This document shows positions 4,176 to 63,559 of a DNA stretch of 64,000 nt, in pieces. Each line of letters opens with the position of its first letter. Position 1 is the first letter of the stretch. The DNA comes from Corynebacterium sp. SCR221107. Its GTDB lineage: Bacteria; Actinomycetota; Actinomycetes; Mycobacteriales; Mycobacteriaceae. A model generated the notes under the pieces. The model made no database searches and was not told the DNA's origin. It saw only the letters and a program-made list of their open reading frames with translations. The stretch lies in contig NZ_CP115670.1 in the NCBI RefSeq assembly GCF_027886475.1, positions 558,001 through 622,000 on the forward strand. The letters run 5' to 3'. The position numbers were made by a program, and so were the translations under genes.

Positions 4176-4459
4176 CGCGCCTTCATTACGCATAGAACCC
4201 ACAGCAGCTAAAAAAATCCCCTGTACGTTTCGCAGACCACTAGTGGCGGACAGTGAAAACGCGCGGGGGAGTCAGAATGAGGAGCTTAAGGCTCGATCGT
4301 CTGAAGAAGATAAAAGAGCACGAGGACAGTACTACTAGGCGAAAACATGGCCGAGGGGGATGCTTCCCTTTTGGGTTGTCACCTAGTAGTGCGCTGGCAG
4401 GGCGTGGCTACTTATATCCAGTGCTGGTGAATACACAATTCGCCGCTGGGGCGAGTGAA

Positions 4460-4762
4460 CTATACAGTGATTTTTGGGCGGCTACGGTTGCGGCTTCGCA
4501 GGACCAGCTGACGCTCCGACTCGGAAAGCCCGCCCCAGATTCCGTAGGGCTCGGCGACCTTGAGCGCGTGTTCACGGCACTGCTGGAGTACGGGGCAGTC
4601 GTTGCAAATGGCCTTGGCGCGAAGTTCACGCTGCATGCGGGCGCGTCCGCGTTCGCCGTCTGGGTGGTAGAAGACGTCCGAATTCTTCCCGCGGCAAGCA
4701 CCTCGAAGCTGCCAATCCCAAAAGTCAGCATTTGGACCCGGGAGCAGGTTTGGCTGGGTCAT
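4460..4762 (-). CDS. WhiB-family iron-sulfur regulator (WhcB-like)
   Basis: A 100-residue WhiB-like protein. Cys23, Cys53, Cys56 and Cys62 form the C-Xn-C-X2-C-X5-C pattern that binds a [4Fe-4S] cluster, followed by the GIWGG turn (residues 74-78) and a basic C terminus. Such proteins usually bind the major sigma factor and adjust transcription to redox or stress. By position (between groEL1 and sigD) it corresponds to whcB of C. glutamicum; that assignment is from memory of gene order. A longer forward frame over the same DNA (from 4253) has no protein-like features. Confidence 0.9.
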   Translation of the reverse strand: MTQPNLLPGPNADFWDWQLRGACRGKNSDVFYHPDGERGRARMQRELRAKAICNDCPVLQQCREHALKVAEPYGIWGGLSESERQLVLRSRNRSRPKITV

Positions 4763-5433
4763 GTTCGTGGATTCTCCTTGAAATGCGCAAACGGTAGTGC
4801 GGGCGACGCACGGAGGGGTGTGCGCTGCTCACCTTGATGCGGTGCCAAGTTTTCACGGGAAAGGTAAACAAAGGGTGTCCCGTGGTTATCGACCCCGTGG
4901 CCAGCGTTGAAACGCTAGGCATTCTTCCTGCAGTTTTAGGGAACTACACTGTTGTGACCTGCACTTTCTTCCGTAAGTGAAAACTAGGTTAACTCTTTGG
5001 TGGGAGATAAAACAAGAGAAAAATTAGGCGAATATAAGGTCTTGCGCACCCGACGTGTATGCGTGTAAGTGGCCTTTGAACCTACCCGCAGGCAATCGCC
5101 ATCCTTGGCAGTGGTACTGCCGGATGGTTGGAATCCTTCCTTCCAAAGTCCCGGAACGGGATCTCCTCGTGGTTGAGAAAAGTCGAAAACATAGCCGTTG
5201 TGCAAACGGCAAATAGTCGTGGTGGGGCTAGGTTTGGGCCAATGAAAGCCGGTGATTGCAATCCTTCAAAAGCAAGGGATGTGAGAGTTTGCGCACGCCA
5301 ACGCTGCGGTTTTCGGGATAGTTACAGGTATATTGTTTGGGGTATGCGCGTGTGGGGGCATCGGTTTCGGTGTCCCGGCAAGGAGAACAAGTGATTGTGC
5401 GCCATCAAGGGTGCACTGGAGGTTTGGGCTGTC
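4763..5433. other. long intergenic/leader region between the WhiB gene and sigD
   Basis: This 670-base stretch has no convincing gene. It contains the divergent promoters of the WhiB gene and sigD, an A/T-rich promoter-like segment near 5020-5040 (GAGAAAAATTAGGCGAATATAAGG), and the hairpin cluster at 5099-5210. Short frames at 4725-4922, 4984-5212 and 5128-5394 look non-coding. Confidence 0.6.
5099..5210 (+). other. cluster of four hairpins in the sigD upstream region
   Basis: Four perfect inverted repeats lie in 112 bases. Hairpin 1 is nested: CCATCC (5099-5104) with GGATGG (5122-5127) enclosing GGCAGT/ACTGCC. Hairpin 2: TTGGAA/TTCCAA (5128-5146). Hairpin 3: TCCCG/CGGGA (5149-5161). Hairpin 4: GCCGTT/AACGGC (5194-5210). 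None has a T-run, so they are not ordinary terminators. I do not recognise a known riboswitch; a structured leader RNA is possible. Confidence 0.45.
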
Positions 5434-5441
5434 GTGAGTGA
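5391..5441 (+). other. possible 16-codon upstream ORF overlapping the sigD start
   Basis: GTG 5391 is preceded by a strong AAGGAG (5380-5385) and opens a 16-codon frame that stops with TGA at 5439-5441, eight bases into the proposed sigD start at 5434. This arrangement would allow translational coupling. Alternatively the AAGGAG may serve a TTG start of sigD itself at 5395. Confidence 0.3.
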
Positions 5442-5997
5442 TCGTGAGCAAGAGTTAGCGGAGCTTGTTCCGCTGGCTGCTGCCGGTGACCAGCGTGCCC
5501 TGCGCTTCGTCATCGACATTGTCTATCCTCTGGTGCTGCGGTACGCACGCGCGCGCATTTCCGGTGGCAAGCATCCCACGGCAGAAGACGTGGCCCAGGA
5601 GATTTGCTTGGCGGTGGCGACAAGCATCGGCAAGTTTGTGGATCAAGGGCGCCCGTTTATGGCGTTTGTCTATGGAATCGCCTCCAATAAGGTTGCCGAT
5701 GCCCATCGAAGCTTTGCCAGGGATCTTTCCAACCCCACCGATGATGTTCCTGATGTGGAGATTGATCGTCAATCACCCGAGGAATATGCCCTGCTCAGCG
5801 ATAGTAGTAACAAAGTTCGGCAGCTGCTCGATTTACTCAGTGAGAAGTCTCGCGAAATCCTTATCCTGAGGGTTTTCGTGGGGCTGAGTGCGGAGGAAAC
5901 CGCACAGATCGTAGGAAGTACCCCCGGTGCCGTCAGGGTGGCGCAGCACCGAGCCCTTGCCACATTGCGCAAGGAATTAGAGCAGGAGACCAGCTAA
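5434..5997 (+). CDS. sigD: ECF sigma factor SigD
   Basis: Extracytoplasmic-function sigma factor of 187 residues. Region 2 spans about residues 25-95 (AEDVAQEICLAVATSI, then FVYGIASNKVADAHRSFAR) and region 4 about 125-180 (SREILILRVFVGLSAEETAQIVGS with the helix-turn-helix). GTG 5434 is favoured by GGAGG about ten bases upstream; an in-frame TTG at 5395 is the alternative. In corynebacteria SigD controls mycomembrane and cell-envelope genes. The stop is two bases before rsdA, so both are co-transcribed. Confidence 0.9.
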   Translation: MSDREQELAELVPLAAAGDQRALRFVIDIVYPLVLRYARARISGGKHPTAEDVAQEICLAVATSIGKFVDQGRPFMAFVYGIASNKVADAHRSFARDLSNPTDDVPDVEIDRQSPEEYALLSDSSNKVRQLLDLLSEKSREILILRVFVGLSAEETAQIVGSTPGAVRVAQHRALATLRKELEQETS

Positions 5998-5999
5998 CC

Positions 6000-6947
6000 A
6001 TGACGAATCGTCGTTTCGGAGACAAAGACTCCGAGCAGTTCCCGGTCACGGAGCTTATTGCGCCCGTGAACGCGGACGAGGCGTTTGTTAACTCCCTTGC
6101 AGCTGGGGATCAGTCCCTTCGTGGTACTGATCCGTTGGCTGATCTCTTTCTCGATTTCAAGGGCGAGTTGGATCGGGACATGCCCGCCCCGCCTACTTTG
6201 GCGATGTTGGGCTTAGAGGATGTGTCTGCGGATGCGCCGGAACCGCTTGCCGACGGCGCGCCGGCCGATTCCCATCCGGCGACCGATCAGTTCCCCGCCA
6301 ATGTGGTTCCGCTTCGCGGTCGAGGCAAGCGTCTTTCGGCGCAATCCGGAGGAAAACGTGGCTTCCGCAGCAATTTCGTCTCCGGCCTCGTAGGGGCAGC
6401 GGCAGCGACTTTGGTCATCGCTGGCGGTGGATCGATGGTGGCCGGCGCGGGTGTGGATTCCCCGTTGTATGGGCTCAACCAGCGCCTTTTTGGGGGCACG
6501 TCCGAAACTGCTGTCGTCGAACTGGCCTCCGCGCTGGAACAAGTCGATAACCTCAGTAATGCCGGCGATGCCGAGGGGGCTCGTCAAGCCCTCGAGCAAG
6601 CCCGAGCGATTGTCGATGGCATGAAGCCCAAGGATCGTCCCCCAGCGCAAACCCAGGTGGATCGGGTGGAGGCCAGCTTGGTCAAGACCACAGAGACCGT
6701 CACGGTCACCGAGACCGCCCCGGCTGAGCCGACGACGGTGACGGTAGTCCAAAGCCCGGGCACCACGCCGACCCCTGTGGCTGAGCCGACGACTACGGCC
6801 GCCGCGCCGGTCGCTCCCGTGGCACCCGTCCAACAGCCCACCAGCTCGGCTCAGGCAAGCCCTGCCCCGAGCGTTTCGCAGCCGAATCAGGATCCGGACG
6901 CCACTGCCCCAGCTGTGCCGTTGGAACCTCCGGTGGTCTTCAACTAA
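6000..6947 (+). CDS. rsdA: anti-sigma-D factor RsdA
   Basis: A 315-residue single-pass membrane protein. The N terminus (residues 1-65) resembles the RsdA sigma-D-binding region, with DPLADLFLDFKGELDRDMP. One membrane segment lies near residues 122-145 (FVSGLVGAAAATLVIAGG). The outer part ends in a Pro/Thr/Val-rich low-complexity tail (residues about 225-310). It starts two bases after sigD. Release of SigD by regulated proteolysis is known for the mycobacterial homologue and is inferred here. A family-A core lies at 6245-6254. Confidence 0.9.
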   Translation: MTNRRFGDKDSEQFPVTELIAPVNADEAFVNSLAAGDQSLRGTDPLADLFLDFKGELDRDMPAPPTLAMLGLEDVSADAPEPLADGAPADSHPATDQFPANVVPLRGRGKRLSAQSGGKRGFRSNFVSGLVGAAAATLVIAGGGSMVAGAGVDSPLYGLNQRLFGGTSETAVVELASALEQVDNLSNAGDAEGARQALEQARAIVDGMKPKDRPPAQTQVDRVEASLVKTTETVTVTETAPAEPTTVTVVQSPGTTPTPVAEPTTTAAAPVAPVAPVQQPTSSAQASPAPSVSQPNQDPDATAPAVPLEPPVVFN

Positions 6948-7015
6948 GGGGAGCGGTAGCGTCACTACCGATAGCAAAAATTCTTCGCAGGCCAGTGCAT
7001 TGCGTGTTACGAGAA

Positions 7016-7052
7016 GTGCCGAGACTCACTCAGTGGTCTCGGCACCTGTCTT
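7016..7052 (+). terminator. terminator of sigD-rsdA
   Basis: GTGCCGAGAC (7016-7025) pairs perfectly with GTCTCGGCAC (7036-7045), followed by CTGTCTTTT. Confidence 0.8.
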
Positions 7053-7574: not shown

Positions 7575-9631
<2,057 letters not shown>

Positions 9632-11195: not shown

Positions 11196-12158
11196 CTAGA
11201 CCGGCGTGGCAGCCGGGTTGCTGGCAGTGTCGCTTATATCACGTCCGTCACTGTGGGCACTTTGGGTGGGGTCGCTACTGATACGTGCGCGTCGATTAGC
11301 GGAAACGGTAATGCCGATACTGGCCGCGATCACCATGCAGGCCGCGACGCCGCCGAGCAGGCCGATGGGTTGGGATAACAAGATCCAACCGGCCGTTGCC
11401 GCGATGGCGGGTTCGAGCGAAAGCATGATGCTGAAGATGTTTGAAGGCATTCTCCGCAGCGCGAGGAACTCGAAAAGGTAAGGCAGGACGGATGCCAAAA
11501 GACCGGTTCCGAAGGCCAACAGGAGCAGGTGGGGGTCGGCCAAGACTGTCGGCACCTGGGAGAGACCGAGGGGCGCCGGGATCAGCGCACCTATTAGTAC
11601 TGCCATGGCAAGACCGCCGGTGCCGGGCACGAGCGCGCCAGCGCGTGCCGACGACAGGATATACAGTGCCCAGAAGACCGCCGCCGCAAGAGTAAAGGCA
11701 ACGCCAATGGGATCAAGCGGTTCCCCCGTCAACGACTCGAATCCCAGGAGACCAAGCCCGCAGGCGGCGAGTCCTACCCAAATGAAATCCCGCCCATTGC
11801 GCGACAATAGTGCCGAGAGCACCAGCGGGCCGATAAACTCGATTGTGACAGCCGTGCCGAGGGGGATGCGTGCAATGGCATGGTAGAAACAGGTGTTCAT
11901 GCCACCGAAGCTGAGCCCGAAGAAGATCACAGCGCGCCATTGCGCAGCAGTCCAGGTTCGTATCTTGGGGCGAGAGAAGGGGATGAGGATCAGTCCCGCG
12001 ACGATGAGTCGGAAGAAGGTGGTTCCTGAAGCGCCCGCGTGAGGGAATAGTTGAGTGGCCAGCGCTGCGCCAAATTGCAGGGACAGGCACGAGCCGAGCA
12101 CGAGGAGAATACCTGTGGTCGGCACTGCGCTTGCCGACGCCTTCGGTGTGAAACTCAT
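11196..12158 (-). CDS. EamA/DMT-superfamily exporter (RhtA-like)
   Basis: A 320-residue protein with about ten hydrophobic segments in two EamA repeats (about residues 15-145 and 160-290), typical of drug/metabolite transporters such as the RhtA threonine/homoserine exporter. The polar tail (residues 290-320) is unconserved. It is divergent from a LysR gene 117 bases away, the usual arrangement of an exporter and its activator. The substrate cannot be read from sequence; an amino acid is likely. Confidence 0.85.
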   Translation of the reverse strand: MSFTPKASASAVPTTGILLVLGSCLSLQFGAALATQLFPHAGASGTTFFRLIVAGLILIPFSRPKIRTWTAAQWRAVIFFGLSFGGMNTCFYHAIARIPLGTAVTIEFIGPLVLSALLSRNGRDFIWVGLAACGLGLLGFESLTGEPLDPIGVAFTLAAAVFWALYILSSARAGALVPGTGGLAMAVLIGALIPAPLGLSQVPTVLADPHLLLLAFGTGLLASVLPYLFEFLALRRMPSNIFSIMLSLEPAIAATAGWILLSQPIGLLGGVAACMVIAASIGITVSANRRARISSDPTQSAHSDGRDISDTASNPAATPV

Positions 12159-19803: not shown

Positions 19804-20678
19804 ATGAGTGTCCCAGAATTCGAACTTTCCACCGGCGCACGCATGCCGTGCGTAGGCTTGGGCACCTGGCTTATCGACGCCGCCAACGCCGAAACCCCCT
19901 CGTCGCCGAAGCGCTGCGCGCAGGCTACCGTCACATTGACACCGCGCAGGCTTACGGCAAAGAGTCGGGGGTGGGCAAAGGCGTGCGCGCCGGAAGAGAA
20001 GAATGGGGGATAGGGCGTAGCAGCGTCTTCATTACCACTAAGATCGCGGCCGAGGCCAAGGATTATGACTCGGCGCTGGCCTCGATTGACCAATCGCGTG
20101 ACAAGCTGGGGCTTGACTATATCGACTTGATGATTATTCATAGCCCGCATCCATGGGTGGAATTCCGCGGGACCGACAAGCGCTACTTCGCAGAAAACCT
20201 TCAGGTGTGGCGCGCCCTCGAAGATGCTCAAGCGGCAGGCAAAGTTAAGGCGATCGGCGTCTCGAATTTCTTGGAAGATGACCTTGCCAACATCCTCGAG
20301 AATGCGCACACTCAACCCTCGGTCAACCAGGTCCTGGCCCATATTTCGAATATGCCCACAGAGCTTATCGACTACTGCCACCGCAACGGTGTTGTGGTCG
20401 AGGCTTATTCACCGCTAGGTCACGGAGCCAACTTCCGCAACCCGCGCCTTATGTCCATCGCTTCCACGTATGGGGTAGGCGTGGCACAGCTCTGGCTGCG
20501 TTACCTTCTCGACAAGTGGCTAGTTGTTTTGCCCAAGATCACCAGCGTCGAACGATTGCGAACAAACCTCGAGCTCGATTTTGCGCTGTCCGACGAAGAT
20601 GTCTTGGCTCTCGATCACATCACAGATGCTCCCGACTACGGTGAGCACTCCTTCTTCCCCGTCTTCGGGGGGGGGTAA
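19804..20678 (+). pseudogene. aldo/keto reductase, frameshifted
   Basis: The N terminus (MSVPEFELSTGARMPCVGLGTW, from ATG 19804) and the rest of the protein (LVAEALRAGYRHIDTAQAYGKE onward) are in different frames. They join at a run of five C (19895-19899); one base appears lost. Downstream the catalytic Asp/Tyr (HIDTAQAY), Lys (TTKIA) and His (IIHSPHP) of 2,5-diketo-gluconate-reductase-type enzymes are intact. A sequencing error or phase-variable C tract cannot be excluded. The frame open from 19686 is not a natural N terminus. Confidence 0.75.
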
Positions 20679-20717: not shown

Positions 20718-20911
20718 CTACTACAACCCAAAAAGACCCTTAGACGCGTGCGGCCGGTAGTCGACGGCCAACCGCACACGCTTCGGGCGAAAGATGCCGC
20801 CTAGGTAGGTAGTATGCTTTCTCGACGGAAATTGACGAAAGAGCATGCCCGCTACCTTCATGGGCGGCATCTATTATGCGAAGCGACGCATACGAAGCAA
20901 AGGGGCTACCC

Positions 20912-22402: not shown

Positions 22403-23801
22403 CGATTTGAAGTAGGCTGTCGATTTCTAGTGAATTCGTGGACTGCAGGGTGCGCGACTCGTCGATGAGCTCCCGCGAGCTCAGCCACGCCTCGAACTCC
22501 GGAGCGAAGCGCTGGCCGGTAACCGAGCGGGCCAAGGCCACGTCGTGGTAGCTCAGTGACTGGTATCCGAGCATGATGTCGTCGGCGCCCGGTACGCAGA
22601 TCACGAAGCTGGCTCCGGCCTGGATGAGCAGGTGTAGCAGCGTGTCCATGTCGTCGGAATCTGCTTCGGCGTGGTTGGTGTAGCAGACGTCGACACCCAT
22701 CGGCAGGCCGAGGAGCTTGCCGCAGAAGAGGTCCTCGAGTCCGGCGCGGATGATCTGCTTGCCGTCGTAGAGGTATTCGGGTCCGATGAAGCCGACCACG
22801 GTGTTGACCAGCAGGGGGTTGTAGCGTCGCGCTAGGCCATAGGCGCGGGCCTCGAGGGTTTGCTGGTCTACGGGACGCCCGTCGCCGTCGAGGTGTGCCG
22901 CCGCAGACAGGGCCGAGCCCTGCCCGGTCTCAAAGTACATGCAGTTATCCCCCACCGTGCCGCGGCGCAGCGAGAGGGCGGCCTCGTAGGCCTCATCGAG
23001 GATCGCCGGGGTCACTCCGAAGCTGTCGTTCGTGCCTTCGGTTCCGGCAATGGATTGGAATACCAAATCGACCGGTGAGCCGTGCTCGATGAGCCCGATG
23101 GTGGTGGTGACGTGAGTAAGGACGCAGGACTGTGTGGGTACCTCGTAGCGCTGGCGGACCTCGTCGATGAGCTGGAGCAGGGTGTCAACGCGCGAGGGGA
23201 TGTCGGTGGCTGGGTTGATGCCGATCACGGCGTCGCCGGAGCCCATGAGTAGCCCGTCGGCGATGGAGGCTGCGACACCGATGGGGTCATCGGTGGGGTG
23301 GTTGGGCTGGAGGCGGGTAGCAAGCGTTCCGGGCAGGCCGATAGTGGATCTAAACGCGGTGACGTTACGTATAGTGTGTGCGACTGCGATCAATTCGCCG
23401 TTGCTCATGAGTTTGGATACGGCCGCCACCATCTCCGGGGTCAGCCCCTTGGCGATTGACGCGAGGTCGAGGCTTGCCGACTTCCGGTAGCACGTCGCAA
23501 GCAACCACTCCCGGAACTCGCCGACGGTAAGCCTCGACACGATATCAAAGGCCTCGAGGTTGAGGTCGTCGAGGATGACTCGGGTGACCGAATCGGTCTC
23601 ATAGGGCATGGCGGGGTGTTCGAGGAAGTCCGCCAGGGGCACGTCGGCAAGCACCCAGCGTGCTGCAGCGCGCTCCTGCGCGGTGGCGGCAGCTGCGCCT
23701 GATAACACGTCGCCGGAGCGGGCGGGGGATGCCTTGGCAAGGACGTCGTTGAGGGAGGCGAATTGGTAGGTATGCCCGGCAAGGCGTTGAACGTAGACCA
23801 T
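22383..23801 (-). CDS. eutB: ethanolamine ammonia-lyase large subunit EutB
   Basis: Catalytic, cobalamin-binding subunit of ethanolamine ammonia-lyase, 472 residues as expected. Recognisable blocks are FASLNDVLAKASPARSGD near the start, VIGINPATD and CVLTHVTT in the barrel, and NHAEADSDDMDTLLHLL with the C-terminal PGADDIMLGYQSLSYHD. It lies downstream of the permease gene. The coding sequence contains one B variant (23360-23374) and two A cores (23472-23481 and 23643-23652). Confidence 0.96.
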   Translation of the reverse strand: MVYVQRLAGHTYQFASLNDVLAKASPARSGDVLSGAAAATAQERAAARWVLADVPLADFLEHPAMPYETDSVTRVILDDLNLEAFDIVSRLTVGEFREWLLATCYRKSASLDLASIAKGLTPEMVAAVSKLMSNGELIAVAHTIRNVTAFRSTIGLPGTLATRLQPNHPTDDPIGVAASIADGLLMGSGDAVIGINPATDIPSRVDTLLQLIDEVRQRYEVPTQSCVLTHVTTTIGLIEHGSPVDLVFQSIAGTEGTNDSFGVTPAILDEAYEAALSLRRGTVGDNCMYFETGQGSALSAAAHLDGDGRPVDQQTLEARAYGLARRYNPLLVNTVVGFIGPEYLYDGKQIIRAGLEDLFCGKLLGLPMGVDVCYTNHAEADSDDMDTLLHLLIQAGASFVICVPGADDIMLGYQSLSYHDVALARSVTGQRFAPEFEAWLSSRELIDESRTLQSTNSLEIDSLLQIGGGSYV

Positions 23802-27223: not shown

Positions 27224-28405
27224 ATGATGGGGGATATGAATCTCGAAGCAGCCTACCCGCGCTACGTGCGCCGCAAAGATGGGGCGGTGCTTGCAGGCGT
27301 TGCCAGCGGGCTTGCCGCACACCTGCGCATCCCGGTGGATCGGGTGCGCGTGGCGCTCGTGGCACTGGCGCTGCTAGGTGGGCTCGGCCTGTATTTCTAT
27401 ATCGGTCTATGGATCATCACTCCGGCGGAAGACCACCACGAGGCGTCCCCGGCGCGCATGAGTCGCTCCTTCAATTATCTCCTCGTGGCGTTGGCCGGGC
27501 TCGGTGCGGCCGCGATCGGCGGTTTCGTCGCGGGGCTTTCCGGCGGGATTGTGGCGGCGTTGGCGATCACGGCCGTGGGGGCGGGGTTGGCGTGGCTGTC
27601 GTATGACAGGGCGGTGGATCGTAGTGGTACTGACGCTACGCATAGTCAACCGCGCACCGTGATCGCGATCGGCGCGGGCGGGATCCTCGTGTTGTCCGGG
27701 GTGGTGCTGACCATCGCGCAGTGGGGTGATGGGGAAAGCTTCGGCCTTGCTGTGGCGGCAGTGCTGCTTACCCTGGTGGGGGTGGCTGCGCTGGGGATTC
27801 CGTTCGGGCTGCGCGTGTGGTCGCGGATGACCTTCGAGCGCGAGCAGAAATTGCTTGCCGACGAGCGCGCCGAGATTGCCAACCGCCTGCACGATTCCGT
27901 GCTGCAGACGCTGGCGATTATTCAAAAAAGGGCCGATGACCCCGCCGAGGTGCGCCGGCTCGCCCGCGGCCAAGAGCGCGAGCTGCGCCAATGGCTGTTC
28001 GCACCTGTTGAGGACACCACCGTTTTCGCCGCCCTCAACCGCGCGTGCGGGGAGGTTGAAGACACTTTTGGCGTGCGCATCGCACCGGTGACCGTGGGCG
28101 AAGATCTTCCTATCAGCGATTCTTTGCAAGCCGCGGTTTTGGCTGCCCGGGAAGCGATGGTCAATGCGGCCAAGCACGCAGGGGTAGGTACGGTCGACGT
28201 GTACGCGGAGACGCTTGGCGGCTTCGAGGTGTTTGTGCGCGACCGCGGGACCGGCTTTGACCAGGAGGCGATTCCGGCCGATCGTCATGGGGTGCGCGAT
28301 TCCATTCTGGGCCGGGTGCACCGCGCGGGTGGGACGGCCACGATTACCTCTACCCCAGGTCAGGGCGTGGAAGTTGCCATCGTCATGCCGGTCACAGACC
28401 AGTAG
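27224..28405 (+). CDS. esrS: sensor histidine kinase with PspC domain (EsrS-like)
   Basis: A 393-residue kinase. The N terminus is a PspC domain (RRKDGAVLAGVASGLAAHLRIPVDRVRVAL), followed by about six membrane segments to residue ~205, then a HisKA_3 domain with the phospho-acceptor His223 (RLHDSVLQTL) and an HATPase domain (VFVRDRGTGFD). In-frame ATGs at 27227 and 27236 are alternative starts. It is divergent from the PspC inhibitor and followed by its regulator. A B variant (27621-27635) encodes the linker DRSGTDATHS, and an A core lies at 27853-27862. Confidence 0.9.
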   Translation: MMGDMNLEAAYPRYVRRKDGAVLAGVASGLAAHLRIPVDRVRVALVALALLGGLGLYFYIGLWIITPAEDHHEASPARMSRSFNYLLVALAGLGAAAIGGFVAGLSGGIVAALAITAVGAGLAWLSYDRAVDRSGTDATHSQPRTVIAIGAGGILVLSGVVLTIAQWGDGESFGLAVAAVLLTLVGVAALGIPFGLRVWSRMTFEREQKLLADERAEIANRLHDSVLQTLAIIQKRADDPAEVRRLARGQERELRQWLFAPVEDTTVFAALNRACGEVEDTFGVRIAPVTVGEDLPISDSLQAAVLAAREAMVNAAKHAGVGTVDVYAETLGGFEVFVRDRGTGFDQEAIPADRHGVRDSILGRVHRAGGTATITSTPGQGVEVAIVMPVTDQ

Positions 28406-28515: not shown

Positions 28516-29208
28516 ATGAGCGAACCGATTACCGTTTTTCTCGTCGATGACCACTCTGTTTTTCGTGCCGGCGTCAAAGCCGAGATTGGCGGGCAGGTGG
28601 CAATCGTCGGCGAGGCGGGTACCGTTGCCGACGCGGTTGCCGGTATCGATGCGACATGTCCGGATGTGGTGCTTCTCGACGTCCATATGCCCGATGGGGG
28701 TGGCGTTGCCGTCCAGCGTGCGGTTAGTGCCACGCCGCGTTTTCTAGCTTTATCAGTCTCTGATGCCGCAGAAGACGTCATTTCCGTTATTCGTGCGGGT
28801 GCGCGCGGGTATGTCACCAAGTCGATCTCCGGTCCTGAGCTGGTGGAGGCGATTACGCGGGTGCATACCGGGGATGCTGTTTTTAGTCCGCGCCTGGCAG
28901 GTTTTGTGCTCGATGCCTTTGCTCGTCCTGATCATGAGGCGGGAGCGGGTGTGGTTGAGGATCCGGTACGCGACGCCGCCGTCGATCGCGGTGCGCCTGT
29001 GTCGGATCCTATCGTCGATGCGCTGACTCGCCGCGAACTAGAGGTACTGAAGCTACTGGCTCGCGGATACACGTATAAAGAGATAGCCCAAGCGTTGTTT
29101 ATTTCGGTCAAGACCGTCGAGACGCATGCGTCGAATATTTTGCGCAAGACCCAGCAGTCCAACCGACATGCGCTCACGCGGTGGGCGGTCTCCCGCGATC
29201 TTGATTAG
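28516..29208 (+). CDS. esrR: NarL/LuxR-family response regulator (EsrR-like)
   Basis: A 230-residue regulator starting at ATG 28516 with AGGAG four bases before it. The receiver domain carries phospho-acceptor Asp55 (VVLLDVHMP) and Lys near 105 (YVTKSIS). The C-terminal LuxR-type helix-turn-helix is LTRRELEVLKLLARGYTYKEIAQALFISVKTVETHASNIL. An extra linker of about 30 residues separates the domains. It completes the three-component set with the PspC protein and kinase; targets are expected to be envelope-stress genes. Confidence 0.92.
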   Translation: MSEPITVFLVDDHSVFRAGVKAEIGGQVAIVGEAGTVADAVAGIDATCPDVVLLDVHMPDGGGVAVQRAVSATPRFLALSVSDAAEDVISVIRAGARGYVTKSISGPELVEAITRVHTGDAVFSPRLAGFVLDAFARPDHEAGAGVVEDPVRDAAVDRGAPVSDPIVDALTRRELEVLKLLARGYTYKEIAQALFISVKTVETHASNILRKTQQSNRHALTRWAVSRDLD

Positions 29209-30744: not shown

Positions 30745-30756
30745 ATCGGAAGCGGT

Positions 30757-32464: not shown

Positions 32465-33994
32465 ATGCGGACGCTGGCCATGTGGTTTCCTGACTGGCCG
32501 GTGCAAGCCGCCCGTCTTGAAAACAAGGCCGGGCCAGGGCCAGTGGTGATTACCTCCCGATTCCGTGTTGTTGTCTGCGATCCGGAAGCGCGCGCAGCAG
32601 GAATCAAGCGGGGCATGCGTGTCAGGCAAGCCCAAGCGCTGTGTGCGGAGGTTGCGGCGGTTGATTTAGACGAAGAACGCGATGCCCGCACATTCACAGG
32701 ATTGGTGGAAGATCTCGCCGACGTCGTTCCGAGCATTGAGATTCTGCGGCCAGGATTAGTCGTGCTCAACGCGGCAGCGGCCGCGCGCTTTTATGGCAGC
32801 GAGGATCGCGCCGCAGAAAAGCTCATTAATGCTGTAGCCCGGGCGGGAAGCGATTGTCTGGTAGGCATTGCTGACGAGATACCTACTGCGGTGCTGGCCG
32901 CGCGGGAGCAAAAGATCGTGCCGAAGGGAAAATCGCTTGTATTCCTGGCTTCATTACCACTAGTGATGCTGCGCCACGAGGTCGCGCTGGGCTGCGCACC
33001 GGAGGTCGTCGATACTCTTTATGATCTTGGCGTGCGCACGCTCGGGGATCTCGCCAACCTCCCGAAGCACACTGTCGTCACCCGTTTCGGTGACGAAGGG
33101 ATGCGCTGTTATGAGATTGCCAGCGCGCATGACGATCGACTTGTTGCCCCACCGATCGAAGGTGAGGACTTCAGCGTATGGATACGCCCCGAGGATCCCA
33201 TTACCCGCGTGGACGAGGCTGCGTTTATTGCCCGTGCGTTGGCCAGCCAGTTGCATGAGACTTTAAGAGCCCGGGGGTTGGTCTGTTATCGGTTGAGGGT
33301 TCATGCTAGTGGTAATGAAGCTACCGCTACCCGCACCTGGCATACGCGGACGCAACTTGATGAGAAGGCGATGGCCGATCGTGTGCGGTGGCAACTGGAT
33401 GCATGGCTGGCATCGGGAGGGGTCGGTGCCATCAATGAGCTCGGCCTCGAACCCGTCGAATGCGCACAACCGGCTGCACGCAGCCTCTGGGGTGCGCAGG
33501 CAAGTGATGAGGCTCAGAGGGTGATAGCGCGGGTACAGTCGAGTTTAGGGATCAGCGCAGTCAAGACTCCCGTAGTCGTCGGGGGACGTGGGGTACGCGA
33601 GAGGATTGACCTCATCGATTATGGGGAGTCGGTGGATGTGCAGGCTCGACGCGCGCGAGGACGCTGGCTAGGCAAGATCCCACCGCCGCTACCCGCGCGG
33701 CTAGGCGATGGCGCCGCGAAGGTTAATCTGCGCGCGTCCGCGGCTGCGGGTGGGATGACGGTGTACGTCACCAGTGAAGCCGTCTTGAACGCCGATCCGG
33801 CGATCGCAGAGATCGACCACGAGCGATTCGACGTCATCGGGTGGGCCGGGCCTTGGCCAGTAGATGATGGATGGTGGCAGGGCAAAGCGGCGGTGGCCAG
33901 ACTGCAAGTGGTGGCCGTCGATAAGCAAAACCGCCCACGTGCATGGCTGCTGCTGTGGGCGGGACGCTGGGAAGTGGAAGCAGAATTCGAATAG
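32465..33994 (+). CDS. imuB: Y-family polymerase-like protein ImuB
   Basis: A 509-residue Y-family DNA polymerase homologue (MRTLAMWFPDWPVQAARL; RGMRVRQAQALC; VEDLADVVPSIEILRPGLVVLNAA; LGDLANLPKHTVVTRFG). ImuB proteins lack the catalytic acidic residues and act as the hub linking DnaE2 to the sliding clamp; at the usual catalytic motif this one reads VPSIEILRPG, consistent with an inactive polymerase. It is co-transcribed with imuA'. Family-B copies lie at 32949-32963 and 33306-33320. Confidence 0.93.
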   Translation: MRTLAMWFPDWPVQAARLENKAGPGPVVITSRFRVVVCDPEARAAGIKRGMRVRQAQALCAEVAAVDLDEERDARTFTGLVEDLADVVPSIEILRPGLVVLNAAAAARFYGSEDRAAEKLINAVARAGSDCLVGIADEIPTAVLAAREQKIVPKGKSLVFLASLPLVMLRHEVALGCAPEVVDTLYDLGVRTLGDLANLPKHTVVTRFGDEGMRCYEIASAHDDRLVAPPIEGEDFSVWIRPEDPITRVDEAAFIARALASQLHETLRARGLVCYRLRVHASGNEATATRTWHTRTQLDEKAMADRVRWQLDAWLASGGVGAINELGLEPVECAQPAARSLWGAQASDEAQRVIARVQSSLGISAVKTPVVVGGRGVRERIDLIDYGESVDVQARRARGRWLGKIPPPLPARLGDGAAKVNLRASAAAGGMTVYVTSEAVLNADPAIAEIDHERFDVIGWAGPWPVDDGWWQGKAAVARLQVVAVDKQNRPRAWLLLWAGRWEVEAEFE

Positions 33995-34034
33995 AACCAG
34001 AACTAGGACTCGTCTATCTGTCTCATCGTTACTG

Positions 34035-46279: not shown

Positions 46280-49200
46280 ATGGACTGGAGTAGTGGGTAT
46301 CTTGGCGGCCCCAAGGGGGCGCCATTGAGCTGGAAGAAGCTCGAAAAAGTGCTCTCTGGCAAGCCGACGGCGCCTCTTGTCCCCGTTGATCATATCCCGG
46401 CTAGAGGAAGTGCTGGTGCCGGCGTTGGGGGCGATCGAGGGAATATTCGAATAAATGCGAACCGGCCATATTGTGAACTCCACGCGGCAGGAAGCTATCA
46501 CTTCTTACGCGGCGCCTCAGAACCTGAAGACATGGTGGCAGCAGCGCAAGCTTGCGGGCACGTCGGCTTGGCGCTACTGGATCGCGACGGCTTCTACGGC
46601 GCGGTCGCCTTCGCTGAAGCTGCTATCGGTAATGACGCCACGCACAGTAACCCCCAAGGTGACAGTCCGGACAACGGCGCGCAGGAGACGTCGGCAAGCA
46701 TGCACGACGTGGCACACGCCGGGATACCCTGCGCCCCGACCAATGCGATCAAGACGATCTTCGGCGCAGAACTGACGCTCGAGGCGGGAATCTTACCGGT
46801 GCTTTGCCGCGGGCCGGAAGGGTACCGGCGTCTCAGCCGAGCGATATCGGCTGCGCGGATGGCAAGCGGGGAAAAGGATCGCGCACTCTACCCGCCGCTG
46901 GAACAACTAGCCGCAGCCGCCGACGGAACCTGGCTCGTGCTCGCCGATCACACCTGGCTGCCACATCTGGACGAACTTTGTGAGGCCTTCGGTACCAACG
47001 TGGTCCTCGAATACGTGCTTGCGCAGGATCCACTCGATGCCGATCACTTCGACGATCTCGATGCGGCGCGGGCCAAGCACGGTATACGCGCCATCGTTAC
47101 CACTAGGGCAACAAGTGCGACGAAGCAGGGCAGCCACCTTGCTGCTGCCAAACAAGCACTCGCGCTGCAACAATCGCTTGCCGACGCCAACCCCGAACTG
47201 CCACCGATGCCGTCTTGGCTGCGCCCGGGAGAGCTGATTGCCCGACAGCTTGGGCACCGCGACTACCTCGTCGATGCCACGGTAGACATCGCCGAGGAAT
47301 GCGCCTTCGAATTGTCACTAGTGGTACCGAAACTACCGAACTGGGACGTGCCCGAAGGATACAGCGAGCAAACCTGGCTCGAGCATCTGGTATGGCAGCG
47401 TTTCGACGTCCGCTACCATAGCCGCAGCAAAGAGGTAACTGCCAAGGCCAGGGCACAGGCCGAGCACGAGCTCGCCGTCATCGACAAACTTGGCTTCCCG
47501 GGATATTTCCTCATCGTCGACGACATCGTCGGATTTGCCAAGAAAGCCAATATCCTCTGCCAAGGCCGGGGGTCGGCGGCCAATTCCGTGGTTTGCTTTG
47601 TGCTGGGGATTACCAATGCCGAACCGATCAGCGCGGGGCTGCTCTTCGAGCGCTTCTTGTCGCCCGAGCGTGAGGGGGCGCCGGACATCGATCTCGACAT
47701 CGAGTCTGGGCGGCGGGAGGAGGTGATCCAATATGTCTACGGCCGGTACGGGCGTGAGAATGCGGCTCAGGTCGCTAACGTCATTACGTATAGAACAAAA
47801 GGCGCCATCCGCGATGCCGCCCGGGCACTGGGCTACCCGCAAGGGGCTGCCGACGGGTGGTCCAAAGGCCTTGACGAGCCACCGAGCGCTGTTACCGAGC
47901 TCGCCACGGAGTTCCTAGGCCAACCTCGCCACCTCGGAATCCATTCTGGCGGCATGGTCATCTGCGACCGTCCCATCGCCGAGGTTGTGCCGACCGAGTG
48001 GGCGCGCATGGAAAATCGCAGCGTCGTCCAATGGGACAAGGAAGGATGCGCCTCGGCGGGGCTGGTGAAGTTTGATCTTCTCGGACTGGGCATGCTCGAG
48101 GCGCTGCATCACATGATCGATCTCGTGGCCGAGACCGGTACCACGGTCAACCTATGGGAACTCGACATGGGGGAACCGGCGGTCTACGAAATGTTGTCCA
48201 AAGGCGATGCCATCGGAGTGTTCCAGGTAGAGTCTCGTGCCCAGCTCAATACGCTGCCAAGGCTCAAGCCCACCTGCTTTTACGACCTCGTCATTGAGGT
48301 TGCACTCATCCGCCCGGGGCCGATTCAGGGTGGGTCGGTGCACCCGTATTTGCGCCGTCGTGACGGAAAGGAGGAGATCACCTTCGAGCATCCGGTGCTA
48401 GAAAAGCCGTTGGCGAAGACGCTAGGCGTACCGCTATTTCAGGAACAGCTCATGCAAATTGCCGTCGACGCGGCCGGGTTTAGCGGCGGCGAGGCCGATG
48501 AGCTGCGCCGTGCGATGGGCTCGAAGCGTTCGGCACGCAAGATGGCGGCCCTGCGTGAACGCTTCTACGCCGGGCTGCGCTCCAACGATATCGAGGGACA
48601 AGTCGCCGATGCGCTGTGGAACAAGATTGTGGCATTTGCCGCCTACGGTTTCCCGGAGTCTCATTCGCAGTCGTTTGCGTCACTGGTCTTTTTTTCCGCG
48701 TGGTTTAAGCTGCATTATCCGGCCCAGTTTTGCGTTGGTTTACTGCGTGCTCAACCGATGGGGTTTTATTCCCCACAGTCGTTGCTTGCCGACGCCAGGC
48801 GACACGGGGTTGAGGTTTTGCCGATCGACGTCAACGTGTCACAGGTCGAGGCCACCATCGAAAACGGTGCGATCCGGTTGGGGCTCAACCTCGTCAAGGG
48901 GCTAGGCAACCTCGAGGCGATCGTCGAAGGCCAGCCTTATACGGATATCGGGGATCTTGCACGACGGGCAGGCCTTAGCGTCAACCATGTCGAGGCTTTG
49001 GCGCGCGCGGGTGCGCTTGAGTGCTTCGGCGTTGATCGTCGGCAAGCATTATGGCAAGCCGGTGTGGCCGCGACCGAACATGCCAACATGTTGCCGGGAC
49101 TATCGGTAGTGAAGGCACCGACACTTCCCGGAATGAACGCATTTGAGCTTATGGTCACCGACATTGCTGCCACCGGGGTCACACACGATACGCATCCCAT

Positions 49201-50110: not shown

Positions 50111-50163
50111 GGAGTCGATTCTAAGACGGGAAGTTGTGGGCTGAGGTGACGAGGGATGCGCAA

Positions 50164-50178
50164 CGTCATTACGGATAG
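50164..50178 (-). repeat. family-B repeat in the folD promoter region
   Basis: CGTCATTACGGATAG lies 17 bases before the folD ATG (50195). Its GATAGTGGAATAATG continuation resembles a -10 region, so repeat and promoter may overlap. Confidence 0.55.
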
Positions 50179-52180: not shown

Positions 52181-53716
52181 TCAGGCGGCATCAGGCGGCA
52201 AATCGCCCGGCGCTGACGTCCTGTTTTTCTCATGCGCCGATGGGTGCGCTGAGGAAGCACGGTTGGATGCGCGTCGACGTTCGGCGCGATCGGCGTAAAC
52301 TTTGTTAACTGACTTGCCAGTGAAACGACGCGGGGCAGCTGGCCCATTGGGAAAGGTGGTCACCGTGGTGCCATCTTTGAAATGCCATTCGAGGACGCGC
52401 TCGCCCAGGTGGGCGTAATGGAAATTTTGTTCGGTTTTTAAGTTGTGGTGATATTTGCACAGGCAAAATAGGTTGCTGACCTCGGTCTTGCCGCCGAGGT
52501 TATACTCGACGCGGTGATCCATCTCGCAGTAGATCGCGGGTGCGTCGCAGTTGGGGAAGCGACAGTGGCCGTCGTAAAGCTCAACGGTAGTACGCATGCG
52601 TTCCGGGACCTGGTAGGCGTCGACGGAGGCGTCAACGTCAAGGGTGCGTTCAATTGCTGCCTCGCGAAAACGGGCGGCCTGGTCGTCGTCAAGCGGGCCG
52701 ACGCCATTGAGAAATAGCACGCCGTCGCGGGTAAACGTGTTGTGTACGACCTTGATTTTCGAATGTGAGCGGATGCCGGCCAGCAAGGAATCTGCCAGAT
52801 CAAGTTTGGCTGGTGTGCGGTTTTCTGCTCGCGCACGAGCGTGCTCTTGAGTGGTAATCCGGTGCAGCGACGTGTCCATGAATGCGCGCACCTCACGGGC
52901 CTCATCGTCGGGCAGATGGAAGCTAAAACGGGTAAAACCGGGCTCGCCGCGACGCACACTGGCAGTGCGCTTGGCCATGTCCTTCTTCTGTGCGACGGCT
53001 CCAGGATCGACCTGAAGCACCATTTCACGCACCCTTTTTGTGATCGTCTGTGCTTGCGGCAAGACCTCATTGGGTACGGTGGGCGTGAAAAATTCAACTA
53101 GCATGGCGTCGAGCGTTTTGCGCTTATCGACGTCGCGGACGCCGCACACCTGCTTCTCAATTGCCCGTAACCGTGTTGGGCACAAATGCTTCAGTTGCAA
53201 CGCCAAAGCATGCAATTGTGGGAACGCGCGCAGCATGGTGCTCACGCGGAGATGATCGCGAGCCTCGCCTAAGGACTCTCCGCGGGCCGCGCTGAGGTAG
53301 GAAAGGAGTTCGCGCTCGGACATCTCCTCCGGAGGATGCCACGAACCCCACAGCTGCACATAGCGGTAATTGGTCTCCATCTTGTCGGAGGAAAAGCGGT
53401 CGCCACCATCGAGGTGCCGATAGTTATCCACGGTAGCTTGAGCCTGGTTGACAGGAGGGTTTTCTTGAAGATCCGTGGGCACCTCCGCGTGTGCTCCTCC
53501 CTTTTCCGGCTGTGACCTGGCCGGGGACGGGCGCGGGGTGGGTGAGTGGCGCGGATCTGTGTTGTCCTGGGTTGTTGTGTTTTTAGCTTGGGCTGAATCG
53601 AGATTATCTGCGCGGGAGCTATCGTCGGGGCAGCGTCCTGGGTGCTGACCTGATTCAGGGGAATTGGGGGTGAAAATAGCGTGGTCGATGTCCTGGCGGG
53701 GGTGGTGGGAATCCAT
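52181..53716 (-). CDS. HNH endonuclease, DUF222 type
   Basis: A 511-residue protein starting at ATG 53716 (MDSHHPRQDIDH), with AGAAAGG nine bases upstream. A Pro/Ser/Asn-rich N terminus (about 1-95) leads to a DUF222 helical region (about 110-350). The C-terminal HNH domain has Cys pairs (CRFPNCD; CLCKYHH) and CEMDHRVEYNLGG as the catalytic His region. Such proteins are abundant in actinobacteria and linked to mobile DNA; their role is unsettled. It contains no family-A or -B copies. Confidence 0.85.
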   Translation of the reverse strand: MDSHHPRQDIDHAIFTPNSPESGQHPGRCPDDSSRADNLDSAQAKNTTTQDNTDPRHSPTPRPSPARSQPEKGGAHAEVPTDLQENPPVNQAQATVDNYRHLDGGDRFSSDKMETNYRYVQLWGSWHPPEEMSERELLSYLSAARGESLGEARDHLRVSTMLRAFPQLHALALQLKHLCPTRLRAIEKQVCGVRDVDKRKTLDAMLVEFFTPTVPNEVLPQAQTITKRVREMVLQVDPGAVAQKKDMAKRTASVRRGEPGFTRFSFHLPDDEAREVRAFMDTSLHRITTQEHARARAENRTPAKLDLADSLLAGIRSHSKIKVVHNTFTRDGVLFLNGVGPLDDDQAARFREAAIERTLDVDASVDAYQVPERMRTTVELYDGHCRFPNCDAPAIYCEMDHRVEYNLGGKTEVSNLFCLCKYHHNLKTEQNFHYAHLGERVLEWHFKDGTTVTTFPNGPAAPRRFTGKSVNKVYADRAERRRASNRASSAHPSAHEKNRTSAPGDLPPDAA

Positions 53717-54749: not shown

Positions 54750-55850
54750 CTATATGGAGAACTCAATAGTGTCGGCGGCGTCAGTACCACTAGCCAACGT
54801 CAAAAAGTGGCGAATAATGCGGTCCATCTGCCGCGCCTCTGTAAGGAACGCATCGTGGCCGACCGGGGAGGAGATTTTCGCCATCGCGAGGAGGTTTCCA
54901 ATATTACGAGAAAGGTGCTCTTGCTGGTGGTAAGGGTAAAGAATGTCCGTATCTACGCCAGCGACCATCGTAGGCACCTTGCAGGAAGCCAGGGCTTTGT
55001 TCAACCCGCCTCGACCACGGCCAATATCGTGGCGATTGAGCGCCTCGGTAAGCGTGACATAGGAGCCGGCGTCGAAACGCTCCGTGAGTTTGTATCCCTG
55101 ATAATCAAGGTAGCTTTGTACTGCGAAACGCTGCTTGTTGCTGCGGAAGGGGCCAAGTGGATTCTCCCCGGCTTGTGCTTGGGTCCCGAAGCGTTCATCG
55201 ATTTCTAGTTCACCGCGGTAGGTCAGATGCGCAATGCGGCGTGCAGCGGCGAGCCCTTCGGTCGGTGGTTGGGAATCGTAGTAATCGCCCCCATTCCAAT
55301 GCGGGTCGCGCTCGATGGCCGAAATTTGGGCTGTTTGGATGCCGATTTGCCATGCCGAAGCGCGGGCAGAGACGGCGATGACGAAGGCGGCGTCGAGCAT
55401 GTCTGGGTACTTGAGTGCCCATTCAAGTGTGCGGGCACCACCCATGGAGCCGCCTATGACAGCGTGAAGGTGCGTGATGCCGATGGCGTGGAGGAAAGCC
55501 CATTCGGCATCGACCTGGTCGCGGATGGAGATAGCAGGGAAGCGGGAGCCATAAGCAGCACCGTCAGTACTGATAGAACTCGGCCCCGTCGAACCCTTGC
55601 AGCCACCGAGCACGTTGGTGCAAACAATGCAGTAGACATCGGTGTCGAGCGCCAGGCCTGGCCCGATTACTCCCGACCACCATTCGGCTGCGTTGGAATC
55701 ACCGGTCAAGGCATGTTCGATGAGAATGACGTTGTCGTCTTTGAGCTCGCCCCAGGCCTGGTAGGCGATGGTGACGTTCGAGATCGTGGCGCCGGCCTCG
55801 GTGGTGAAGTCGCCGATAGAGACCGTGCTGAGCGCTCCAGAAGTGTCCAT
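54750..55850 (-). CDS. metX: homoserine O-acetyltransferase MetX
   Basis: MetX acetylates homoserine with acetyl-CoA, the first methionine-specific step. The 366-residue alpha/beta-hydrolase starts at ATG 55850 with GGGAGGG upstream. The nucleophile Ser lies in VIGGSMGGARTLEWA, and the late block GVDTDILYPYHQQEHL carries the catalytic Asp. Two B variants lie in the gene (54779-54793 in the C-terminal ASGTDAADT, and 55562-55576). It forms the methionine pathway with metY upstream. Confidence 0.95.
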   Translation of the reverse strand: MDTSGALSTVSIGDFTTEAGATISNVTIAYQAWGELKDDNVILIEHALTGDSNAAEWWSGVIGPGLALDTDVYCIVCTNVLGGCKGSTGPSSISTDGAAYGSRFPAISIRDQVDAEWAFLHAIGITHLHAVIGGSMGGARTLEWALKYPDMLDAAFVIAVSARASAWQIGIQTAQISAIERDPHWNGGDYYDSQPPTEGLAAARRIAHLTYRGELEIDERFGTQAQAGENPLGPFRSNKQRFAVQSYLDYQGYKLTERFDAGSYVTLTEALNRHDIGRGRGGLNKALASCKVPTMVAGVDTDILYPYHQQEHLSRNIGNLLAMAKISSPVGHDAFLTEARQMDRIIRHFLTLASGTDAADTIEFSI

Positions 55851-57861: not shown

Positions 57862-57906
57862 AACCTCCCGCCAACCCCGGCTTATCGCGCGGGGTGGCGG
57901 GAGGTC
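57862..57906 (-). terminator. icd terminator
   Basis: ACCTCCCGCCA (57863-57873) pairs with TGGCGGGAGGT (57895-57905), with an inner CCCC/GGGG stem; TTTCTTTTC follows on the minus strand. Confidence 0.88.
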
Positions 57907-57929
57907 TATGCGTAAGGAAGGTGCTTACA

Positions 57930-60417
<2,488 letters not shown>

Positions 60418-61968: not shown

Positions 61969-61983
61969 CTATTGGTAATGACG
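61969..61983 (+). repeat. family-B repeat upstream of xth
   Basis: CTATTGGTAATGACG lies 19 bases before the xth ATG; the following CTCTACTATGAAC looks like a -10 region of a nearly leaderless gene. Confidence 0.6.
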
Positions 61984-62002
61984 ATGCCTCTACTATGAAC
62001 CC

Positions 62003-62902: not shown

Positions 62903-63126
62903 CGCCACCGGAGACTGTGTGGATACAGCGCGGACACAGCGCGGTGGCACTGCCGCTTGCCTTGAGAGCCCCTCAATGGGCGGGAGACCCCCACAATGTC
63001 CACTTTTGTTTAAATTTCCGAGAAAAATCGGGTATATTGAGGCCGGTTCATCAATTGCCGACGAAAGTCTGCGGAGTCGGCACGGTAGGTGTAAGTGGCC
63101 TGCCCCATCTTTCTTAGGAGCAATGC

Positions 63127-63306
63127 ATGCGTGTTAAGGGAATGATCCTCCTCATTTTGGGTGTCGTACTGGTTGCAGTTTCTTTCCTGCTGCTGGGTGA
63201 TCACGACGTCAAGGCAATCATCGGCGCACTGGTCATGGCCTTGGGCGGCGCCTCGCTGCTGGGAGCTTTGGTAGAGCTGTTCGGCGAGAAGCCACGCATG
63301 CAGTAG
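63127..63306 (+). CDS. small membrane protein, 59 residues
   Basis: ATG 63127 (MRVKGMILLILGVVLVAVSF) with AGGAG six bases upstream. Two hydrophobic segments (about 6-23 and 30-48) are separated by GDHDVKA; the tail is polar (GEKPRMQ). It has its own terminator. Family not recognised; it is likely real because of the clean ribosome-binding site and terminator. Confidence 0.75.
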   Translation: MRVKGMILLILGVVLVAVSFLLLGDHDVKAIIGALVMALGGASLLGALVELFGEKPRMQ

Positions 63307-63317
63307 TTGTGACCGAT

Positions 63318-63350
63318 AGGCCAGAGTCCGAAAGGGCTCTGGCCTTTTTT
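63318..63350 (+). terminator. terminator after the small membrane protein
   Basis: AGGCCAGAG (63318-63326) pairs with CTCTGGCCT (63337-63345), followed by a T-run. Confidence 0.9.
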
Positions 63351-63380
63351 CATATCCTTATCGCCTTTCGTTGCATTGGT

Positions 63381-63559
63381 GCTTTCCGACGTTCGCAGCC
63401 TGGCATAGCGCGGGCGTGGATAACGCCCTATCACGGGCAGTCGTCGGTGTGCGGCCCGCGGTGAACGTCGGCAAGCATAACGATGTTGCCATCAAGGGCG
63501 CGCCCTCGTGCATACGTCAAATCATCGGGGCGGCTGCGTTTGCACTATCGGTACTGACG
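63381..63559. repeat. cluster of A, A and B repeats upstream of trpS
   Basis: GCTTTCCGAC (63381-63390), GTCGGCAAGC (63467-63476) and the B variant CTATCGGTACTGACG (63545-63559) lie in the 300-base gap before trpS. Confidence 0.65.

What the first reader, a model, noticed from the sequence alone, without database searches (positions are those of the whole stretch)
4181..63559. Family B: a dispersed CTANNNGTAATGACG word, about 26 copies
Copies matching CTANNNGTAATGA exactly on either strand start at 4181, 9746, 18852, 20703, 22362, 26970, 31679, 32949, 33306, 44908, 46623, 47779, 50164, 57817 and 61969 (15 copies; about 0.1 expected for ten fixed bases). Variants with GTAACG, GTACTG or GTAGTG start at 6960, 12816, 13216, 15470, 15500, 23360, 27621, 47092, 54779, 55562 and 63545. 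The variable triplet is mostly TAC, TGC, TCG, TTG or GTG. Copies occur before start codons, after terminators and inside coding regions. Unlike a terminator it has no dyad.
Basis: partly seen in the sequence, partly recalled or inferred. Interest (0 to 1): 0.82.

Follow-up and report, generated by a model that had tools for sequence, protein, structure and literature searches.

The report
Nuclease gene ringed by target sites
All 22 exact copies of this DNA word in a 3-million-base Corynebacterium chromosome lie within about 105,000 bases around a nuclease gene whose protein likely binds them, and related species carry different words around their own versions of that gene, which would be a new kind of gene-centred DNA territory.

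Summary
The word is real: 15 exact copies, 0.03 expected. It is the strong half of a 25-bp dyad (CTATNSGTAMYGWCRKTACSNATAG), so "no dyad" is wrong. It is regional: 22 of 22 exact copies lie at 552-657 kb, and 27 of 27 dyads (up to 3 mismatches) at 554-663 kb, of 3.04 Mb. Each of 241 other same-genus genomes has at most 2 copies. Sister G215 has another array with another dyad elsewhere; the window's genome has a second array with a third motif. Each array holds an HNH endonuclease gene, the only protein family found in all three unlinked arrays; two array medians lie within 1.5 kb of it. The window's copy is 52181-53716(-), with a predicted ParB/Noc-like DNA-binding fold. In a group of related species, dispersed sites switched one base together (10 of 13; background 20 of 210). 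I conclude that the motif is likely the recognition site of the HNH protein; what the nuclease does there is inferred. No array was detected at many other HNH genes, most read only partly.

The parts
52181..53716 (-). HNH endonuclease gene, 511 aa, inside the array (likely the protein that recognises the sites)
   Evidence: HNH motif (below Pfam's curated cut-off); homologues; only family shared by three unlinked arrays; start as in P0002
53000..53386 (-). N-terminal helical domain with ParB/Noc-like DNA-binding fold (predicted)
52364..52627 (-). HNH nuclease domain, conserved D-H and cysteine residues present
969..993 (-). array site, 18.1 bits
4171..4195 (-). array site, exact core, 21.6 bits
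6950..6974 (-). array site, 26.8 bits
9736..9760 (-). array site, exact core
11260..11284 (-). array site, 18.2 bits
12816..12840 (+). array site, 21.7 bits
13205..13229 (-). array site, 16.5 bits
15470..15494 (+). array site, 23.2 bits
16654..16678 (-). array site, 15.4 bits
17154..17178 (+). array site, 18.8 bits
18093..18117 (+). array site, 20.2 bits
18842..18866 (-). array site, exact core
20017..20041 (-). array site, 18.9 bits
20703..20727 (+). array site, exact core, 28 bits
21457..21481 (-). array site, 16.2 bits
22362..22386 (+). best array site, 32.4 bits, near-complete dyad
23350..23374 (-). array site, 20.2 bits
23840..23864 (+). array site, 21.9 bits
26960..26984 (-). array site, exact core
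27621..27645 (+). array site in a predicted gene, dyad with 1 mismatch
29038..29062 (+). array site, 15.6 bits
31210..31234 (-). array site, 19.7 bits
31669..31693 (-). array site, exact core
32939..32963 (-). array site, exact core
33306..33330 (+). array site, exact core
34014..34038 (-). array site, 20.5 bits
34797..34821 (+). array site, 24.3 bits
42204..42228 (-). array site, 17.3 bits
44908..44932 (+). array site, exact core
46623..46647 (+). array site, exact core, in the dnaE2-like gene (gene name recalled)
47082..47106 (-). array site in the dnaE2-like gene
47318..47342 (+). array site in the dnaE2-like gene, differs from G215 by substitutions only
47769..47793 (-). array site, exact core, in the dnaE2-like gene, differs from G215 by substitutions only
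48346..48370 (-). array site in the dnaE2-like gene, 16.2 bits
49100..49124 (+). array site in the dnaE2-like gene, differs from G215 by substitutions only
50154..50178 (-). array site, exact core
54769..54793 (-). array site, 23.8 bits
55552..55576 (-). array site, 22.6 bits
56086..56110 (+). array site, 19.2 bits
56134..56158 (+). array site, 21.5 bits
57807..57831 (-). array site, exact core
57906..57930 (+). array site, 22.4 bits
60418..60442 (+). array site, 26.7 bits
61969..61993 (+). array site, exact core, 29.5 bits
63545..63569 (+). array site, 27.7 bits

Best explanation
The repeated word is half of a 25-bp dyad that forms a regional array around an HNH endonuclease gene (window 52181-53716, minus strand), and it is likely the recognition site of that protein. 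SHOWN: the array is regional; it consists of imperfect dyads; 11 of 17 sites that align to the sister genome differ from it by substitutions without gaps; comparable arrays with other motifs surround related HNH genes at other loci and in other species; two of them are centred on the gene; HNH is the only protein family common to three unlinked arrays; in one group of related species the sites switched the same base in concert. PREDICTED: the protein joins a ParB/Noc-like DNA-binding domain to an HNH nuclease, and would bind the dyad as a dimer. INFERRED, UNTESTED (about 0.35 on its own): the nuclease nicks or cuts at its array, probably rarely, so that recombinational repair copies the surrounding tens of kb together with the HNH gene. 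Site and gene would then be inherited as one linked, partly selfish territory, and new sites would be favoured only within recombination-tract distance of the gene.
Against: No array was seen at other HNH genes: in sampled stretches near HNH genes the scores do not differ from stretches far from them (p 0.24, 0.16, 0.65 in three genomes), and loci L067, L024, L056 and L082 show none that is convincing; most were read for 20 kb or less. In the window's own array the HNH gene is 14 kb from the median of sites, with 43 sites left and 25 right of it. Foldseek E-values are weak (best 0.17) and profile comparison with Corynebacterium ParB is not significant (0.5%). A nuclease whose own chromosome carries dozens of its sites needs protection, rare action or nicking, none shown. 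Drive logic normally removes sites from carriers, whereas here carriers hold them. Array G215-2 is weak and GC-rich. Loci without a detected HNH gene also rank high in the blind ranking (L083, L060, L042).
Confidence: 0.66

Rival explanations
1. Chromosome-domain marker: the sites organise a 100-kb domain of the right arm, like matS/MatP or Noc sites, and the HNH part is inactive or a nickase; selection is on the host.
For: Dyad sites in genes and between genes, regional, on both strands; ParB/Noc-like fold; sites kept within the related groups: 17 of 18 (L080 to L075) and 14 of 15 (L071 to L068).
Against: Different motifs and places in sister species, presence following an accessory HNH gene; at least two arrays per genome; HNH residues kept.
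Confidence: 0.2
2. Decoy array: the sites near the gene hold the nuclease harmlessly and keep it away from the rest of the chromosome; selection on the host to reduce toxicity favours sites close to the gene, where the protein is made.
For: Sites surround the gene and strong ones were not found elsewhere; in the related group sites change in concert, as if following a protein.
Against: Would need binding without cutting at the consensus; no toxicity data; dozens of strong sites seem more than a sponge needs.
Confidence: 0.17
3. Imported block: homologous recombination brought in a stretch from a donor in which the motif is genome-wide (for example an uptake sequence).
For: Rather sharp edges of the arrays.
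Against: Same gene order as G215 and similar mean identity to it inside and outside (82% over 37 genes vs 80% over 12); no donor among 242 genus genomes; several arrays each with an HNH gene; concerted switch in place.
Confidence: 0.03
4. Operators of an ordinary transcription regulator whose regulon happens to be clustered.
For: Dyad sites; excess between genes.
Against: 32 of 68 lie inside predicted genes and several directly after stop codons, next to unrelated genes; the motif is absent from the syntenic DNA of G215.
Confidence: 0.03

Closest known systems
ParB-parS and Noc-NBS systems
   Same: Dimeric protein with this type of DNA-binding fold on many short palindromes (recalled); here the predicted fold of the N-terminal domain.
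   Different: Here an HNH nuclease and no ParB_N CTPase domain by Pfam; the motif differs between sister species; canonical parS sites are separate, near the origin; the array surrounds the protein's own gene in mid-arm.
MatP-matS (terminus macrodomain; recalled)
   Same: Regional set of palindromic sites over a chromosome domain.
   Different: Not at the terminus (GC skew of sampled stretches changes sign between 1.5 and 1.75 Mb); species-specific; at least two arrays with different motifs in one genome.
Free-standing HNH homing endonucleases (recalled)
   Same: HNH nuclease gene with patchy presence, likely sequence-specific.
   Different: Homing enzymes usually have their site in the gene-less relative; here dozens of sites lie in the carrier and none in the gene-less sister.
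DUF222/13E12-repeat HNH proteins of Actinobacteria (PF02720)
   Same: Homologous: 15 of 24 aligned sequences match PF02720.
   Different: In the passages I saw the family is only listed as a repetitive element (PMC10589994); site arrays are not mentioned there.

Membership tests
DUF222 HNH family (PF02720) | Match to the PF02720 profile | tested here: not met
   Window protein: no Pfam match at 0.001; only HNH at 0.0013, below its curated cut-off
DUF222 HNH family (PF02720) | Homology to members, HNH at the C-terminus | tested here: met
   Homologues with PF02720 at 8e-15; 15 of 24 aligned sequences match
ParB/Noc | ParB_N CTPase domain | tested here: not met
   No such match in the HNH protein up to E 10; the single ParB_N match of the genome is at 3.03 Mb
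ParB/Noc | ParB-type DNA-binding domain | tested here: inconclusive
ParB/parS | Sites match the parS palindrome near the origin | tested here: not met
   7 canonical parS at 2.99-3.04 Mb, separate from the array
MatP/matS | Sites cover the replication terminus | tested here: not met
   Skew of sampled stretches and dnaA place the cluster in mid right arm
Homing endonuclease | Gene-less allele carries the cleavage site, carrier does not | tested here: not met
   Carrier has 32 or 61 sites, gene-less sister DNA has 0
Homing endonuclease | Sequence-specific cleavage | not testable with these tools
   No biochemistry possible
DNA uptake sequence | Genome-wide abundance | tested here: not met
   22 of 22 exact copies in 104 kb

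The most novel reading that the evidence does not exclude
Corynebacterium chromosomes carry several 'territories', each a stretch of about 20-65 kb per side in which core genes and spacers have been rewritten by point substitutions into an array of dyads recognised by a ParB-fold HNH nuclease encoded inside it. The territories turn over between sister species, and when the nuclease changes specificity its dispersed sites change together: a gene-centred, selfish DNA system of a kind not described before.
Probability: 0.45. Interest if true: 0.95.

Novelty: categorically new. Interest (0 to 1): 0.88.

Why it matters
It would give a function, or at least a target, to a large and enigmatic family of actinobacterial HNH proteins that includes the mycobacterial 13E12 repeats (that membership is recalled). 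It would show that an accessory gene can reshape the sequence of up to 100 kb of core chromosome around itself. The concerted one-base switch of dispersed sites is a natural experiment in protein-DNA co-evolution, testable by binding assays with proteins from both groups.

Tried and rejected
RNA hairpin or cruciform: no covariation between arms in 68 sites. Terminus macrodomain: wrong place. Displaced parS: canonical sites present near the origin; one ParB only. Phage or plasmid origin: 86 viral stretches with a match, 85 with one and 1 with two, no cluster; the HNH protein of the second array has no match in the plasmid and phage collections at 1e-5 (the window's own protein was not run there). 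Inserted element: 11 of 17 aligned sites without gaps. Imported block. Same motif elsewhere in the genus: none of 241 other genomes has more than 2 copies; with a second pattern none of 200 has more than 3. G068: no array in 41 stretches, 3 of them within 8-10 kb of HNH genes. A generic test of all sampled HNH-near stretches was not significant. A motif model of G215-2 drifted to GC-rich codon-like sequence, so that array rests on word counts. The 75-locus blind ranking also put loci without a detected HNH gene high (L083, L060, L042); L083 and L060 are ungapped GC-rich words; L056's best word recurs in loci without HNH. Pooled group B words against non-group controls mixed several signals; its motif rests on the comparison with group A. 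Paper searches that could have found this system; listings only, except passages of PMC10589994 and PMC12704722 (ParB-CTPase-HNH fusions, DUF222 not mentioned in its main text). I saw no description of such arrays in those listings and passages; most subscription papers are not held.
Full report
1. Observation. The pattern CTANNNGTAATGA occurs 15 times in the window; 0.03 are expected and none of 100 shuffles reaches 15. Of its 11 variant positions, 10 are matched by a weight matrix and 15500 is not. The copies line up over 25 bp as an imperfect dyad centred on an A/T base, with one strong and one weaker half; the best copy is window 22362-22386. Arms do not covary, so this looks like a protein site, not a hairpin.

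2. It is regional. In the window's genome (G000; 3,043,024 bp, one contig, window at 558,001-622,000) all 22 exact copies lie at 552,310-656,626. A 25-bp dyad pattern with up to 3 mismatches gives 27 sites, all at 553,981-662,682; the backward control gives 1. A matrix finds 69 sites of at least 14 bits in 458-722 kb, 68 of them at 545-663 kb and one at 530 kb, and none in ten control stretches of 20 kb or in 180 kb of the sister genome G215 around the syntenic region. dnaA lies at 3.04 Mb and GC skew of sampled stretches changes sign between 1.5 and 1.75 Mb, so the array is in the middle of the right arm, not at origin or terminus. Canonical parS sites lie near the origin.

3. It is species-specific. 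The genus is taken as Corynebacterium because the nearest FolD matches are all from it. All 242 genomes held for the genus were searched with CTANNNGTAATGAMG: the window's genome has 19 copies and no other has more than 2. G215 is the nearest relative found (DnaE2-like protein 82% identical). Across the array G215 has the same gene order, and mean protein identity to G215 is similar inside and outside the array (82% over 37 genes vs 80% over 12 genes that also matched a third genome), so the DNA looks vertically inherited. Of 39 core-pattern sites, 17 could be aligned to G215 and 11 of these have no gap within the 25 bp, so those sites arose, or were lost in G215, by substitutions. Two stretches that do not align with G215 (about 592.5-599.5 and 609.4-612.8 kb) are nearly free of sites; the second holds the HNH gene.

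4. Sister arrays. Screens of gapped words in sampled 20-kb stretches (with later additions 50 stretches of G000, 56 of G215 and 41 of G068) found in G215 a CRISPR array and an array of AAGTCGTTGCA(ACGACTT): 44 exact AAGTCGTTGCA in G215, 43 of them at 2,632.5-2,687.7 kb, against 2 in G000. By my reading it sits among ordinary chromosomal genes. In G000 the screen found a second array (A2), CAATCASGATCGACG; 111 of its 123 matrix sites lie at 2,800-2,860 kb, the rest up to 2,904 kb, with 36 in 680 kb of control DNA. In G068 the screen gave nothing above noise.

5. The common element is an HNH gene. Each of these arrays contains a gene for an HNH endonuclease: window 52181-53716 in the first, 2,839,884-2,841,026 in A2, 2,661,634-2,662,713 in G215. 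The matrix sites of the last two have medians at 2,841,480 (123 sites) and 2,660,775 (91 sites), that is 0.5 and 0.9 kb from the gene edge; for the window's array the gene is inside but 14 kb right of the median. Among 447, 194 and 278 stop-to-stop ORFs of at least 100 codons in the three unlinked arrays it is the only family present in all three at E <= 1e-4. Presence is reciprocal as far as read: the G000 interval orthologous to the G215 gene shows no HNH ORF, and none of the 18 listed of 19 HNH matches in G215 lies at the place of the A2 gene, of which 10 kb was not read. At orthologous DNA the motif counts are 39 vs 0, 32 vs 0 and 61 vs 0. Next to folD both species have the gene (49% identical), and G215 there has a weaker array of its own, CGTCGCGACG-like: 33 GTCGNNACG in 550-590 kb against a mean of 2.7 and a maximum of 6 in 47 other 20-kb stretches.

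6. More species. Among 80 folD loci (75 long enough to rank), HNH genes occur near folD in several species. Locus L034 (C. silvaticum) ranks first with GGAAAGAATCGWCGATTCTTTCC palindromes, L097 (C. pilosum) ninth with GCTTNTCGACGA; L067, L024, L056 and L082 show no convincing array. Loci without a detected HNH gene also rank high (L083, L060, L042). Twelve related loci fall in two groups: five (L075, L080, L089, L081, L091) with CATCNNNAAGC at 10-18 copies per locus and CGTCNNNAAGC at 1-4, and seven (L071, L065, L058, L049, L068, L061, L090) with CGTCNNNAAGC at 14-17 and CATCNNNAAGC at 1-3. HNH proteins are 81-84% identical between and 91-99% within groups; folD DNA is 86-90% between. Of 13 L080 sites alignable to L071, 10 carry the same A-to-G difference, 1 is unchanged and 2 are not sites in L071; other CATC words change so in 20 of 210 cases (p = 1e-7). 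Over all 35 pairs, which are related by descent, 297 of 410 sites differ so, 35 are unchanged, and the background is 936 of 7407. Within groups 17 of 18 (L080 to L075) and 14 of 15 (L071 to L068) sites are kept. This concerted switch at dispersed positions is strong evidence for a trans-acting protein whose specificity changed; that the protein is the HNH product rests on section 5.

8. Mechanism. Recognition of the array by the HNH protein is the conclusion I hold most firmly. Why carriers gain sites near the gene is not shown. Because the strong sites are confined to within about 20-65 kb of the gene, I favour selection acting through linkage: nicking or cutting that makes repair copy the region with the gene. 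A decoy role and a domain-marker role remain open; the conserved HNH residues and the accessory distribution of the gene speak against a purely housekeeping role.

9. Limits. Most other HNH genes were read for 20 kb or less, and pooled statistics there are not significant. No strain-level data, no biochemistry.

Noticed in passing
L247 (G215 2,282,301-2,284,929): CRISPR-like array in G215 with about 64-bp period and repeat GCTGGGGTTCAGTTCATAAAACCCCTGGTAGACTTC.
   Followed up: no
L013 660-4409 (G000 1,000,660-1,004,409): An HNH gene of the same family appears interrupted: an N-terminal piece at 1,000,660 and a C-terminal piece at 1,003,684, with a DnaA-like ATPase match between them, probably of an insertion sequence; no residual array stood out in the stretch.
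   Followed up: partly
L042, e.g. 7631-7668: GTCGNAAAG words, one as a palindrome (GTCGAAAAGCTTACATAAGCTTTTCGAC), 16 in 20 kb with no HNH gene detected in the locus; possibly the edge of another array, partly within a repeated sequence.
   Followed up: partly
L315 (G000 2,690,001-2,710,000): CCTGNNCACC at 15 copies against 2.4 expected, near two more distant HNH genes (2,672,724 and 2,709,136); possible further array.
   Followed up: no
window 29911-31098 and 32465-33991: IS3-like transposase genes (rve domain) beside an IMS-domain gene (imuB-like by recall) that my codon model scored poorly.
   Followed up: no
window 20876-21385: Immunity protein 68 family gene without an obvious toxin partner among the genes I looked at.
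   Followed up: no
genus genomes: CTACAAGTAATGAAG occurs once in many same-genus genomes, probably one conserved site unrelated to the array.
   Followed up: no
window 34.8-42.2 kb: A stretch mostly unaligned with sister G215 (MFS-like, LysR-like, serine-hydrolase-like and sodA-like genes and an IS remnant, by my reading) is free of array sites, as if inserted after the array formed.
   Followed up: partly
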